Shown here piece by piece: positions 29,507 to 33,717 of a stretch of DNA of 49,175 bases. The notes beneath the pieces are model-generated. The model had not been told where the DNA came from. It made no database searches and was given only the letters and a program-made list of their open reading frames with translations. Origin of the DNA: Singulisphaera sp. GP187 (GTDB lineage: Bacteria > Planctomycetota > GCA-002687715). Numbering within the stretch: the first letter of the stretch is position 1; every line of letters starts with the position of its first letter. Location of the stretch: contig CAMDTN010000017.1 in assembly GCA_945907755.1 (NCBI GenBank), positions 1 through 49,175 of the forward strand, given 5' to 3'. Position numbers and translations under genes: made by a program.

Positions 29507-30484
29507 ATGGAGGCTCCCGTTCTCATGCGCTATGTCGGCTTAGGACTGGTTCTCTCGTTGCTCTGCGCCGCCGCTGTTGTGGTGCTGGTCGATCGCTCCC
29601 GCGGTGGGCCCCCGCCATCAGCGGAGCTACTGGAAGGCCTAGAGCGGCGCCTTGCTGCGCTGGAGCAGCGCTTGGCAGCCCCAGCCCGCGGCAACAACGA
29701 CCCGCGCACTCTCGCGGAAATCGCGCAGTTGTGTGAGGACACCCAAGGTTTGGTGCTGGACGGCGAGCGCGGCCTGCGGCGCGATCTGCAAGGGATCTAC
29801 GAGCGCTTGCTAGCGCGGCTCGACGAGATCAGCCTGCGCAATGCGGCAGCGAGTGCCGCTGCAGACCCAGCCGCGCGCGAGAAAGTGCATGCGCGCCTCA
29901 CCGAACTGGGCATCATCTTGCGCTTGGATGTCGGCGAAGTGGAATTGAGCGGCGCATTCTCTGAAACCGATCGCCCCTTGGAGTTCCTCGCCGTCGCGCC
30001 GGGCGGGCGCGCCTACGAAGCGCTGTTCTTGATTGATGTAGCGCCGGCAGCCTTGAAGGTAGCCATCGAAGAACTGGGTTTCGCAGAAAATGACCCCGAC
30101 CCCGAGACTTTTCGCTGGGCGGACAGCACGCGTGGCGTGTTCGTGTATGCACAGTGGGAAGGCCAAGCGCACCCATGCCGCGTTGAAGACTTGGTGTGGA
30201 ATCGCGAAACCGACACGATCATGCAACGCACGCCATGGATGTTCACTGCCTCGCGCTTCTTTACCGACACGCGCACTTGGGAGCGCCACTTCGCGGCTGA
30301 GCTCTACAAAAACTTGATGGCGTTGTCCCTGACCTATGCCGCCGAAGCCCTGCTTGCCAATCCGTTGGAGTGCGCATCCAACGAGAACATCTTCTTCCCC
30401 AACAAGGACCGTTGCCCGAAAAGCGGCACCAAAGCGAAGTTGATCTTGCGGAAAGAAGCGCAGCCCGAGTGGGACAAGCCCTGA
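29507..30484 (+). CDS. membrane-anchored YdjY-domain protein
   Basis: About 325 residues from ATG 29507, or 319 from ATG 29525 (MRYVGLG), which follows GGAGG. One N-terminal helix (VGLGLVLSLLCAAAVVVLVD) anchors it. A coiled region (about 38-120, rich in Leu/Arg/Glu) follows. A YdjY-like domain (about 130-240) reads LGIILRLDVGEVELSGAF, PLEFLAVAPGGRAYEALFLI and DVAPAALKVAIEELGF. The C-terminus is unrecognised (SRFFTDTRTWERHFAAELYK, NIFFPNKDRCP). YdjY domains are common in planctomycetes, function unknown. It overlaps the following Ala-rich gene. Confidence 0.75.
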   Translation: MEAPVLMRYVGLGLVLSLLCAAAVVVLVDRSRGGPPPSAELLEGLERRLAALEQRLAAPARGNNDPRTLAEIAQLCEDTQGLVLDGERGLRRDLQGIYERLLARLDEISLRNAAASAAADPAAREKVHARLTELGIILRLDVGEVELSGAFSETDRPLEFLAVAPGGRAYEALFLIDVAPAALKVAIEELGFAENDPDPETFRWADSTRGVFVYAQWEGQAHPCRVEDLVWNRETDTIMQRTPWMFTASRFFTDTRTWERHFAAELYKNLMALSLTYAAEALLANPLECASNENIFFPNKDRCPKSGTKAKLILRKEAQPEWDKP

Positions 30485-31614
30485 GAGGGCCCGGACTGCC
30501 GCTTGGAATCCCGCCGAGCGACGAACTGAATGCGTTGCTGCGCAAGGCCGCTCGACGCGCGCGCTGCAGCGCAGCGCTGGAAGTGAGCGCGTGGCCGTTG
30601 CTGCTGCTGGCCTCTGCCGTGTTCCTGTGGGAAACGCTGGCGCGAGTGGTCTGGATGCCGCAAAGTTCCGGCCTTGCCTTGGGGCTAGGCATGATTGGAT
30701 TGGGCGCTGGACTGCTGCGTGCCAGTCGCACGCCAACGGCATGCGCAGTGCTGCACGAAGCCGGCAACATCGCTGGCAGCCCGCTGCTTTTTGCGAGCCT
30801 CGAACACAGCGAGAACAGTGCGTTGGGGGCGCTCGTAAGAGCACGCGCGGCAGCGCAGGCCGCCGCGCCCTCGGCCACCACAGCACCTCCCCCGAAACTC
30901 GCGGTGCGCTTGCTGCCGTTGGCTTTGCTGTTGGCGGTTTTGGCCGCGGCAGTTCCGGGCCGCGAGGCGCGCGCGACGCCCTACGCAGACAGCGCACACA
31001 GCGTCCGAGCCGCGCTGGATGCAGCGCGTGCGACGCTTGTTTACCAAGCGCCGCAGAGCGCGAATGTCCTGACCGCAGACCCTGCCAAGAAGCCCGCAAT
31101 GCTGACGGCGGAGGCCGCAGCAGTGGAAGCAGCGCTGCAAGCTGATGTGCGCGCCTTGGCCCGCGTCGCCGCCGCGTTGCCCGTGGCTGATGCCGCCACG
31201 ACAGCACAAGCACTGGCAGCACTCGCAGAAAAGCTGCGCAGCAACGCCGCGTCGCAAGAAGAACGCGAAGCGCTCAGCACCGCGATCAGCGCTGCGCGCA
31301 CGGTGGTGCCAAGCGGCGAAGTTGCGGCGCTGTTGGCTCGCTTGCAACAAGAGCTTGCTGCGGGCTCCAGCGACGGCGCTGCGTCGGCATTGGCTGCACT
31401 GGCAGCGGCCGCCGCAGCACGCGCGCCAGCGTTGGACGCGGTGCAGCAGTTGCAATTCGTTTTGCGCGCAACACACACGGGCGCGCCAACAACCAGCGAA
31501 GCGCAAGAGCGCGATGACTTGCGCTCAGCCGACAGAAACGGCGCGCGCAGCAGCACAGCAGAGCGCCAACGCGAACCGCAACATGCACGCGTGCTCGAAC
31601 GCTATTTCCGCTGA
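30469..31614 (+). CDS. Ala-rich membrane protein, unknown
   Basis: About 381 residues from a GTG at 30469 that overlaps the YdjY-domain gene by 16 bases; no ATG gives a sensible start. Two hydrophobic segments come early (about 37-53, WPLLLLASAVFLWETLA; 61-80, SGLALGLGMIGLGAGLL) and a third at about 140-157 (LLPLALLLAVLAAAVPG). The remaining 220 residues are extremely Ala-rich with heptad-like Leu/Arg/Gln, predicted helical or coiled. The tail is polar (RSSTAERQREPQHARVLERY). I do not recognise the family. It is probably co-transcribed with clpC or the YdjY gene, since a terminator follows at 31689. Confidence 0.6.
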   Translation: MGQALRGPGLPLGIPPSDELNALLRKAARRARCSAALEVSAWPLLLLASAVFLWETLARVVWMPQSSGLALGLGMIGLGAGLLRASRTPTACAVLHEAGNIAGSPLLFASLEHSENSALGALVRARAAAQAAAPSATTAPPPKLAVRLLPLALLLAVLAAAVPGREARATPYADSAHSVRAALDAARATLVYQAPQSANVLTADPAKKPAMLTAEAAAVEAALQADVRALARVAAALPVADAATTAQALAALAEKLRSNAASQEEREALSTAISAARTVVPSGEVAALLARLQQELAAGSSDGAASALAALAAAAAARAPALDAVQQLQFVLRATHTGAPTTSEAQERDDLRSADRNGARSSTAERQREPQHARVLERYFR

Positions 31615-31650
31615 GCTTTGCGCACGGCGAGATACAAACAACTAAGCGCG

Positions 31651-31660
31651 TGTCTCGACA
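31651..31660 (+). repeat. TGTCTCGACA repeat, copy 1
   Basis: TGTC-TC-GACA, a near-palindrome, followed directly by GCACAT. A second copy lies 115 bases downstream; a 9-bp inverted repeat sits between them. Confidence 0.5.
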
Positions 31661-31688
31661 GCACATATCTGGGCGTGATTACGGCGAG

Positions 31689-31739
31689 AAAACGCACCTA
31701 TCCGCCTTGATTACCTTCATTTCGTGAAAGTGCGTTTTT
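31689..31739 (+). terminator. terminator after the clpC-side genes
   Basis: AAAACGCAC (31689-31697) pairs perfectly with GTGCGTTTT (31730-31738) and a fifth T follows. The 32-base interior holds a small TTCA/TGAA hairpin. A-rich and T-rich arms suit bidirectional intrinsic termination. Confidence 0.6.
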
Positions 31740-31765
31740 GGCACGGAACTTGGCAAATGCGCCTT

Positions 31766-31799
31766 TGTCTCGACAAAGCTGCACATGCCCCCTTATCCT
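31766..31799 (+). promoter_or_regulatory. candidate promoter with TGTCTCGACA copy 2 over the -35
   Basis: Second TGTCTCGACA at 31766-31775, followed after five bases by GCACAT. Its TCGACA serves as a -35 (five of six to TTGACA), then an 18-base spacer and TATCCT (31794-31799), the same -10 as the whiG promoter. The leader to ATG 31850 contains CTGCAG-TCG-CTGCAG and GCAAT-GA-ATTGC inverted repeats. The repeat overlapping the -35 would suit a repressor site. Confidence 0.45.
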
Positions 31800-31849
31800 G
31801 CCCTGCAGTCGCTGCAGGTTCGCAATGAATTGCAACGAGGAGGACGCCC

Positions 31850-32902
31850 ATGGCCACCCCTGAGCCAAAGCCAGATGCCAAGTTAGATGCCCTTCCGCCC
31901 TCCGTGCAAGGCGAAGAAGCGGATGAATTGTTGGCCGGTTGGTTTGATGGCCACCGTGCCGGACGCGCCCAGACTTTTAACGAGGTTGCCGATTGCTTGG
32001 CTCCTCATGGCTACTCCATAGAGCACGACGAACTGCTGCGCTGTGGTGGCGAACCATCGCCCCGCTGCGTGGTTCCTGCCCCGGACAACGACGGCAACGA
32101 CCCGCGCTACGCCGAAGGCTATGAACAGGGCTTTGCTGCGGCACGGGCGCGCCTCGTGATGCATGTGCGCGAGCAGTTGGCGCAAGACGGACATTTTTTG
32201 TCGGATGGCTTGCGTGTGCTGACACATGCGGAAGCCTCTGATTTTGTGGATGGGCTCTGCCCTGTCCAAGACCTGCCGCACCGGAACGATCTGGCCGCCG
32301 CCATTCCGGAGGGAGGAATGTGGAATATGGTTGTTCGAAGCTTCACTCGTAGGGCAGCGATCATTACCGTTGGCACCACCATCGTCGCAGCCAGCCTTGG
32401 CTGGATCGGGGCCATGCAATTGGCCCGCCCAGCGCCCGCACCACCGCCACCCACTTGGACGCCGCCGAGTTGCTGGGATGCAACCGGCGCTTTGCCACGG
32501 CAAATGCTGCTGGCCATCGACGAGACTGCCTTCAACTTAGAACAAGCAGAGGGCGTTCCCTCTCCGACGCTGCTGACGCACATGCAGCAGATATTTGCAT
32601 TGCAAGATTCTGTAGGGGAGCTCGGCAGGAGTCTGTATTGCCGTTGGATTGGCGAGCGCGACCGCAGCGAGTATGTGGCGGCTCTGCTGACACAACTGAA
32701 CCCCACGCTGCAAGGTGCACCGGCACGCGGCGGCATCTTGAAGGCCGTCGGGCTGCTGCATCACAACAACCTGCCCAGCATCATCACGACGGCGCACCGC
32801 CAGACGCTACAGGCCTACCAAGCCAGCCAACTGGAAAACGACGAACACAACTGGGACATCCTGGAGCGGCTTGTGGAGGCGCTTGTAGCCGCGGGGATCT
32901 AA
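31850..32902 (+). CDS. unknown single-pass membrane protein
   Basis: 350 residues. The N-terminal 160 residues are soluble and acidic (ADELLAGWFDGHRAGRAQTF, DPRYAEGYEQGFAAARARLV). One membrane helix spans about 168-190 (RRAAIITVGTTIVAASLGWI). A Pro-rich hinge (ARPAPAPPPPTWTPP) leads to a helical C-terminal domain (about 210-350) with two Cys (PSCWD, SLYCRW). There is no signal peptide, so the N-terminus is probably cytoplasmic. A very strong GAGGAGG ribosome site precedes it. The Ig-like 84-aa gene follows after four bases. I recognise no family; base use looks slightly less GC-skewed than its neighbours, which might indicate acquisition. Confidence 0.65.
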   Translation: MATPEPKPDAKLDALPPSVQGEEADELLAGWFDGHRAGRAQTFNEVADCLAPHGYSIEHDELLRCGGEPSPRCVVPAPDNDGNDPRYAEGYEQGFAAARARLVMHVREQLAQDGHFLSDGLRVLTHAEASDFVDGLCPVQDLPHRNDLAAAIPEGGMWNMVVRSFTRRAAIITVGTTIVAASLGWIGAMQLARPAPAPPPPTWTPPSCWDATGALPRQMLLAIDETAFNLEQAEGVPSPTLLTHMQQIFALQDSVGELGRSLYCRWIGERDRSEYVAALLTQLNPTLQGAPARGGILKAVGLLHHNNLPSIITTAHRQTLQAYQASQLENDEHNWDILERLVEALVAAGI

Positions 32903-32906
32903 CCCC

Positions 32907-33161
32907 ATGTCCATCACAAATGTCACCTATGACCCAAACCCGCCTCGCGCGGGCCAGCCGGTGACGATCACTTTCGAAACACCCCAAAGCATGTATCCGA
33001 CTCCGGATGTCAGACTCAAGGTGGGCCGAGAACTGGAGACTCCCCTGCCCGTAACCCGCACCAAGAGCAACAAGTGGCAGATCACGGTCACCGCTACGAC
33101 GCCGACCTCCGGCAGCATCACCATTGTGCAAGGCACGATGATCAAGATCTTGAGCATCTGA
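32907..33161 (+). CDS. 84-aa Ig-like beta protein, unknown
   Basis: 84 residues, a single beta-sandwich-like unit: ITNVTYDPNPPRAGQPVTIT, then FETPQSMYPTPDVRLKVG, KWQITVTATTPTSGSITIVQ. The opening N-P-P-x-x-G-x-P-V-x-I pattern is typical of IPT/Ig-like bacterial domains. Unusually it has no signal peptide and stands alone. It is separated by four bases from the membrane protein before it, so the two probably work together. Function unknown. The downstream 46 bases are unremarkable. Confidence 0.6.
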   Translation: MSITNVTYDPNPPRAGQPVTITFETPQSMYPTPDVRLKVGRELETPLPVTRTKSNKWQITVTATTPTSGSITIVQGTMIKILSI

Positions 33162-33207: not shown

Positions 33208-33717
33208 TCAGCGCACGCGCGGTGTGAAACTCAAACTGGCGCTGTTGATGCAGTAGCGCAAATGCGTCGGCGGCGGGCCGTCTTCGAACACATGCCCAAG
33301 ATGGCTGTCGCAGCGCGCGCAAGTGACTTCCGTGCGCACCATTCCGTGCGAAATGTCGCGATGCTCGGCGATGCGACCGGGTGCCACCTGCTCGAAAAAA
33401 CTGGGCCAGCCGCAACCGGCATCAAACTTCGCATCGGAAACGAACAAGTGCGTGCCGCAACCAATGCACGCATACAAGCCGGCGTCTTTGACATTCCAGA
33501 ACGCGCCACTGAAAGCGCGCTCGGTGCCTTTCTTGCGCGCCACGTCGAATTGCTGCGGCGTTAGTAGCGCGCGCCATTCCGCCTCGGTCCGCGAGATCTT
33601 GTCTGCCGCCACGGGTGAATCCTCCTTGGGCTGCAAGCGTGGCGAGCCGTGTTCATCGACGCCGCCGCAAGCCGCCAACAGCAGTCCAAACAAAACGCAT
33701 AGTTTCTTGCTGCTCAC
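33208..33717 (-). CDS. msrB: lipoprotein peptide-methionine (R)-S-oxide reductase
   Basis: About 169 residues from GTG 33717. The N-terminus [16 protein letters not shown] is a lipoprotein signal, so this MsrB acts at the envelope. The catalytic domain shows CIGCGTHLF and [16 protein letters not shown], two zinc CxxC pairs, GCGWPSFFE, and the catalytic Cys in [12 protein letters not shown]. It reduces methionine-R-sulfoxide in exported proteins. GTG starts a few codons upstream are possible. Divergent from lutA across 66 bases. Confidence 0.9.

What the first reader, a model, noticed from the sequence alone, without database searches (positions are those of the whole stretch)
31615..33161. 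Isolated two-gene cassette of unknown function with repeated operator-like leader
A single-pass protein (acidic cytoplasmic domain, Pro hinge, outer helical domain) is followed after four bases by a free 84-aa Ig-like unit with no signal peptide. The leader holds two TGTCTCGACA copies, one overlapping a -35 element, plus GCACAT after each, with a terminator between them. The strong ribosome site and independent promoter mark it as a self-contained, separately controlled unit. No known family is recognisable.
Basis: partly seen in the sequence, partly recalled or inferred. Interest (0 to 1): 0.58.

Follow-up and report, generated by a model that had tools for sequence, protein, structure and literature searches.

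The report
Lineage-specific membrane-protein and Ig-partner gene pair
Two tightly linked genes in a little-known group of Planctomycetota bacteria encode a membrane-spanning protein and a small antibody-like partner that always travel together; they belong to no described family and may form a sensor on the outside of the cell membrane, but what they sense is unknown.

Summary
The two-gene unit is real. Gene 1 (31850-32902, 350 aa) and gene 2 (32907-33161, 84 aa) are under purifying selection. The pair sits at the same place in both other genomes of the genus. Homologous pairs occur in two further genera of the family, ten pairs in all, always 3-6 nt apart. Outside that family I found none. 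No curated family matches gene 1. Gene 2 is a free Ig/filamin-like fold. Gene 1 has a duplicated helix+hairpin cytoplasmic domain without a recognised fold, an invariant twin-arginine just before one weakly hydrophobic TM segment, and an outer helical domain. The outer domain and the Ig partner travel as a unit: in one relative, tandem copies have identical 5' halves but outer halves and Ig genes about 50% alike. I propose a Tat-anchored membrane sensor whose outer domain carries the Ig subunit out as a folded 'hitchhiker' (inferred, not shown). A new orphan family of moderate interest; function unproven.

The parts
31615..31849 (+). leader between the upstream ORF and gene 1
31651..31660 (+). 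first TGTCTCGACA copy
   Evidence: not conserved in G001/G002 leaders
31689..31738 (+). terminator-like inverted repeat AAAACGCAC/GTGCGTTTT, 32-nt loop; weak
   Evidence: not supported
31752..31789 (.). 38-bp near-palindrome (18-nt arms, 2-nt centre) around the second TGTCTCGACA copy (31766-31775); possible operator
   Evidence: exact core unique in the genome
31770..31799 (+). promoter-like TCGACA-18-TATCCT, 9 of 12
31802..31818 (.). perfect 7-bp-arm palindrome CCTGCAG-TCG-CTGCAGG just after the -10-like element
   Evidence: read
31837..31843 (+). ribosome-binding site GAGGAGG
31850..32902 (+). gene 1, 350-aa single-pass membrane protein
31925..32041 (+). first repeat of the cytoplasmic domain (residues 26-64, helix + beta-hairpin)
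32102..32221 (+). second repeat of the cytoplasmic domain (residues 85-124)
32348..32416 (+). twin arginine R167-R168 and the following hydrophobic, Tat-like signal-anchor segment
32474..32899 (+). outer helical domain (residues 209-350)
32907..33161 (+). gene 2, 84-aa free Ig/filamin-like protein without signal peptide

Best explanation
Gene 1 and gene 2 encode a two-subunit envelope complex, most likely a membrane sensor. Gene 1 has a cytoplasmic domain made of two helix+hairpin repeats, one membrane segment led by a twin arginine, and an outer helical domain. Gene 2, translated by coupling 3-6 nt after gene 1, is a small Ig-fold subunit that pairs with the outer domain. Because gene 2 has no export signal, I infer that it folds with the outer domain in the cytoplasm and is carried out with it by the Tat system (hitchhiker export). 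Gene 1 then holds the complex at the outer face of the membrane, and the cytoplasmic repeats pass on the state of the outer complex. SHOWN by calls: the pair, its spacing and conservation, the domain layout as predicted, the invariant RR, TatC in the genomes, and the linkage of outer half and Ig gene in one relative. INFERRED: translational coupling, topology, physical complex, Tat route, sensing role.
For: Ten pairs, each with the small gene 3-6 nt after gene 1's stop. Conserved at the same place in both other genus members, with dN/dS about 0.15 (gene 1) and 0.16 (gene 2) against G001, dS near saturation. RR directly before the best TM window in 8 of 8 full-length members at about 23% identity, with S/T before RR in 7 of 8 and modest hydrophobicity, 1.6-2.3. 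TatC found in 5 of 5 genomes. Outer half and gene 2 move together: tandem G003 copies share about 600 bp at 100% (promoter region plus cytoplasmic half), then about 50% in the outer half and the Ig gene (55% and 45% aa). A shortened G003 copy that starts just before the TM segment keeps both outer domain and Ig gene (L042 7992-8942). One lone outer domain has a signal-peptide-like N-terminus (L074 2485-3060, judged by eye). Ig members of G003 (6 of 6) carry Cys21 and Cys81 or 82, and G005 has three Cys; the genus members have none, compatible with a disulfide outside. Precedents: single-pass FecR topology (PMC9249621 passages) and Tat hitchhiking of signal-less subunits (PMC10924467 passages).
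Against: No Tat profile hit: seven TM segments against NCBIfam, E up to 10, gave no Tat model. One shortened copy with outer domain and Ig gene lacks the twin arginine (L042 7992). An internal signal anchor with RR could be an ordinary positive-inside TM helix. The model gives no inter-domain confidence (pTM 0.42), so no complex is shown. No partner gene for the cytoplasmic domain is evident. Gene 2 may simply stay in the cytoplasm.
Confidence: 0.38

Rival explanations
1. Ordinary Sec-inserted single-pass protein whose Ig partner stays in the cytoplasm and binds the cytoplasmic repeats, as a soluble regulator.
For: Gene 2 has no signal peptide and low hydrophobicity; genus members have no Cys; positive-inside residues alone would explain RR; no Tat profile hit.
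Against: The Ig gene co-varies with the outer half, not with the cytoplasmic half, and persists beside a copy that lacks the cytoplasmic half (L042 7992); paired Cys in G003 members.
Confidence: 0.3
2. Defence or conflict module: a membrane sensor with a variable outer part that works with neighbouring immune effectors.
For: In G003, three of four contigs with copies hold defence-type genes nearby: HEC-01A/AAA_21 + DUF4276 and Mrr (C22), CHAT-AAA_16 (C62), SIR2-STAND-FGE (C50); CHAT has 7 and SIR2_2 3 places in that 6.1-Mb genome. Identical cytoplasmic half with divergent outer half.
Against: One genome only. In the window and its two congeners the pair sits beside ClpC and (window, G002) SelR genes, not defence genes, and the neighbourhood of the G005 copy showed none by eye (not family-searched). 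No PADLOC match for either protein. dN/dS below 1 wherever it could be computed.
Confidence: 0.15
3. Structural or adhesive envelope component without signalling role.
For: Nearest folds of gene 2 are filamin, amylase N-domain and beta-glucan-binding CBM56 Ig-like domains (Z 8-10).
Against: Would not explain a conserved duplicated cytoplasmic domain with 12 invariant positions.
Confidence: 0.12
4. The leader repeats are operators of a dedicated regulator that controls the unit (compatible with any of the readings above).
For: 38-bp near-palindrome over the -35-like element, 3 of 500 shuffles as good; exact core unique in the genome.
Against: Repeat absent in the leaders of G001, G002 and G003; 10-mer count near chance; 27 of 1000 shuffles hold a repeated 10-mer; no regulator gene recognised in the two adjacent ORFs.
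Confidence: 0.15

Closest known systems
FecR-type sigma regulators
   Same: short cytoplasmic domain, one TM segment, outer domain; FecR is reported to cross by a Tat-dependent route (title seen as a reference in PMC10924467; that paper itself not held)
   Different: no FecR Pfam match, no sigma factor gene adjacent in the window, outer domain all-helical, separate Ig subunit
Tat hitchhiker complexes (hydrogenases, PaoABC, FAD glucose dehydrogenase)
   Same: one subunit carries the twin arginine, the partner lacks a signal
   Different: those have N-terminal signal peptides and are redox enzymes (recalled); here an internal signal anchor and no cofactor motif known
Bacterial Ig-like domains (Big_3_5, PF16640) and filamin repeats
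   Same: fold of gene 2 (Z up to 9.8) and a weak sequence match (E 9e-4)
   Different: below Pfam's cut-off (20.2 vs 35.5 bits); a free one-domain protein rather than part of a large surface protein
HEAT-like alpha-solenoids (Integrator subunits)
   Same: outer domain aligns over 134 residues, Z 9.5, 4.2 A
   Different: within the range the tool warns is common for helical repeats; no sequence link

Membership tests
FecR sigma regulators | FecR sequence family match | tested here: not met
   no Pfam family for window gene 1 at E<=1; FecR not among the matches of the 8 homologues
FecR sigma regulators | ECF sigma gene next door | tested here: not met
   adjacent ORFs are a 414-aa ORF with no family over cut-off and a SelR gene
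FecR sigma regulators | cytoplasmic N part, one TM, outer C part | tested here: inconclusive
   predicted only
Tat substrate | twin arginine directly before a modestly hydrophobic segment | tested here: met
   8 of 8 full-length members
Tat substrate | match to a Tat signal profile | tested here: not met
   none of 7 segments in NCBIfam, E up to 10; HMMER filters may lose such short matches
Tat substrate | Tat translocase in the genome | tested here: met
   TatC in 5 of 5 genomes searched
Tat substrate | export depends on Tat | not testable with these tools
   needs an experiment
Bacterial Ig-like (Big_3_5) | score over Pfam cut-off | tested here: not met
   20.2 of 35.5 bits
Ig-like fold | Ig beta-sandwich | tested here: met
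   predicted eight strands, pLDDT mostly 74-92; matches Z 8-10 to filamin/amylase Ig-like domains
Known anti-phage defence protein | PADLOC match | tested here: not met
   0 families for both proteins at E<=0.1

The most novel reading that the evidence does not exclude
A recombination-diversified membrane receptor of Planctomycetota. One constant cytoplasmic half, kept identical between tandem copies, is joined to exchangeable outer halves, each with its own free Ig-fold subunit carried out by Tat. Extra outer-half+Ig cassettes lie nearby as a reservoir beside STAND, CHAT and SIR2 defence genes. That would be a two-chain antigen-receptor-like design in bacteria.
Probability: 0.1. Interest if true: 0.72.

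Novelty: new variant of a known kind. Interest (0 to 1): 0.4.

Why it matters
It is an undescribed protein family with a cytoplasmic domain of no recognised fold and a constant small Ig partner that lacks an export signal. If the Tat hitchhiker reading holds, it would extend hitchhiking from redox enzymes to a signal-anchored, sensor-like protein. The RR-to-KK test is simple.

Tried and rejected
Profile searches for gene 1 (Pfam, NCBIfam, PHROGs, PADLOC, PDB sequences): only single sub-threshold chance hits. Single-sequence scan of genome contigs: 48 stretches, none confirmed; the profile scan gave 6 loci from 4 MAGs. Viral contigs and plasmids: none. Foldseek with the cytoplasmic domain: no E<=0.001 in PDB or viral models; best VIA Z 7.1 to a Legionella Dot subunit, within the tool's stated noise range. 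This does not show that the fold is new.

Weak gene-2 profile hits outside the pair (G004, G007, G011): Ig proteins of 116-158 aa with hydrophobic N-termini in other gene settings, dropped. G019 (107-codon frame) and G003:C32 (957-codon frame) also dropped. Weak gene-1 hits in G006 and G011 fall in the TM region of 929- and 733-codon frames, and G052 contains stops; all dropped. A look-alike triplet in G003 (L042 2045-3660) is not detectably homologous.

Considered and rejected: anti-sigma factor (no sigma gene adjacent, no family match); toxin-antitoxin pair (no toxin-like domain, purifying selection); assembly or coding artefact (conserved in five genomes).

Caveats on rows: in alignments A1, A4 and A5 the G001 gene-1 row starts three codons before its ATG, and in A2 and A4 its gene-2 row starts one codon after its ATG. 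In one search the MsrB row and the up414 row against G001 gave no dN/dS because of a frame stop, and I use neither.

Full report
WHERE IT IS. The window is contig C17 of a 2.68-Mb, 97%-complete genome. Its two congeners and two same-family members with the gene correspond by contig name and length to Planctomycetota/Planctomycetia MAGs and an 'uncultured bacterium' MAG: Baikal-deep-G176 (G001), F1-140-MAGs146 (G002), RBC034 (G003) and ARS1434 (G005). The class holds only 12 genomes in the collection.

THE OBSERVATION. Gene 1 (31850-32902) and gene 2 (32907-33161) are as described, with TAA-CCCC-ATG between them and GAGGAGG before gene 1. The unit follows a 414-aa ORF by 235 bp and converges on a SelR (MsrB-type) gene that ends at 33208. 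Both genes are under purifying selection (dN/dS about 0.15 and 0.16 against G001, dS near saturation).

CONSERVATION. With gene 1 as query, 6 of 59 genomes (the window's own included) matched, one of them (G052) a hit with stops that I drop. With the profile, 5 of 294 genomes drawn from the phylum matched, at most 6 candidates per genome being scored. With the larger profile, 7 of 12 genomes of the class matched at E<=0.01, of which I accept 5 and drop two hits in the TM region of long frames. All five are in one family; its sixth member, G004, has none. The cytoplasmic domain was found only inside gene 1 homologues (8 of 9 matches in 12 genomes; the ninth, in G008, E 0.03, is dropped). In G001 and G002 the pair lies between the same neighbours (a ClpC gene and the ORF or ORFs after it upstream; in G002 the SelR gene downstream, while the G001 contig ends soon after the pair). 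G003 has four full-length copies and G005 one, each followed by a small Ig-like gene. In ten of ten pairs examined the gap is 3, 4 or 6 nt.

ANATOMY. The cytoplasmic part holds two copies of one unit (profile-profile E 5e-7), each a long helix and a beta-hairpin (pLDDT about 90 in the core). Foldseek finds no PDB or viral-model match at E<=0.001, which does not prove a new fold (notes). Then come RR (8 of 8 full-length members) and a segment of Kyte-Doolittle 1.6-2.3, a Pro-rich hinge, and a helical domain whose best solenoid match is Z 9.5 over 134 residues. Gene 2 is Ig/filamin-like (Z up to 9.8), with a weak Big_3_5 match under the cut-off. The structure is that of the G002 orthologues, not of the window's own proteins; one search is the window's cytoplasmic domain.

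WHICH PART DOES THE IG PARTNER BELONG TO? In G003, tandem copies share about 600 bp at 100% identity (promoter region and cytoplasmic half) and then drop to about 50% through the outer half and the Ig gene; amino-acid identity is 100%, 55% and 45% for cytoplasmic half, outer half and Ig. A shortened copy (L042 7992-8663) lacks the cytoplasmic half but keeps outer half and Ig gene 3 nt on. Another (L042 7457-7639) keeps only the end of the outer half and its Ig gene. A third outer domain (L074 2485-3060) starts with what looks to me like a signal peptide and has no Ig gene listed after it. The outer half and the Ig gene are thus the unit that travels, and the outer half is most likely outside. 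Six of six G003 Ig proteins hold two Cys, G005 three, the three genus members none.

HOW IT MAY WORK. The Ig protein has no export signal, yet its likely partner is outside. The invariant RR, preceded by S or T in 7 of 8, and TatC in 5 of 5 genomes suggest Tat export of a folded pair (the Tat consensus itself is recalled). Signal-less Tat subunits that ride with a signal-bearing partner are established (PMC10924467 passages; PaoABC and glucose dehydrogenase from listing and abstract starts). A single-pass protein with cytoplasmic N part and periplasmic C part is known in FecR (PMC9249621 passages). Against it: no Tat profile matched, and the shortened copy at L042 7992 lacks RR. I rate this reading 0.38 and a cytoplasmic Ig regulator 0.30.

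THE LEADER. The repeated 10-mer occurs in 27 of 1000 shuffles of the leader. The 38-bp near-palindrome around copy 2 is rarer (3 of 500). The leaders of G001, G002 and G003 have neither. The genome holds 7 copies of the 10-mer (control 3) and one exact site of the palindrome core. A private operator is possible; a regulon is not indicated. Promoter scans found nothing in the G001 and G002 leaders.

NEIGHBOURHOODS IN G003. Three of four contigs with copies hold defence-type genes: HEC-01A/AAA_21 + DUF4276 and Mrr (C22), CHAT-AAA_16 (C62), SIR2-STAND-FGE (C50); the fourth (C31), cut by the contig end, showed none by eye. CHAT and SIR2_2 have 7 and 3 places in that genome. This is one genome and was looked at after the fact. 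Conflict systems of this general type in Planctomycetes are described in PMC7159879 (passages). In the passages I saw, none matches this pair, and its main text holds neither 'immunoglobulin' nor 'Ig-like'.

NOVELTY. No described family was found in the searches listed. I made seven paper searches, none by a name for this family because it has none, so I make no claim about print beyond those.

Noticed in passing
L016 8771, L018 284, L042 27/160/7386, L041 5435: A REP-like hairpin GCGGATCTGGTGATCCGC occurs 150 times in G003 and lies within about 320 bp upstream of 5 of the 8 gene-1-type places there; about 0.8% per place would be expected by my estimate. Not found in the window, L014, L015 or L019.
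   Followed up: partly
L042:2045-3660: An ORF that reads like a sigma/HTH protein (no Pfam match), a single-pass protein and a small 98-aa protein with Cys form a unit with the same layout but no detectable homology.
   Followed up: partly
window 31802-31818: A perfect palindrome CCTGCAG-TCG-CTGCAGG sits just after the -10-like element of the proposed promoter.
   Followed up: no
window 29507-31614: Two ORFs between ClpC and the pair (325 and 414 aa) have no family over cut-off but counterparts in G002 (68% and 36% aa identity).
   Followed up: no
L059:5259-8372, L060:3907-7144: In G007 and G011 a small Ig-like protein with a hydrophobic N-terminus lies directly after a large ATPase gene of ClpB/ClpC type (by eye), next to a polytopic membrane protein.
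   Followed up: no
L042:7457-8942: Outer-half fragments with intact Ig genes lie in a row in G003, like cassettes left over from recombination.
   Followed up: partly
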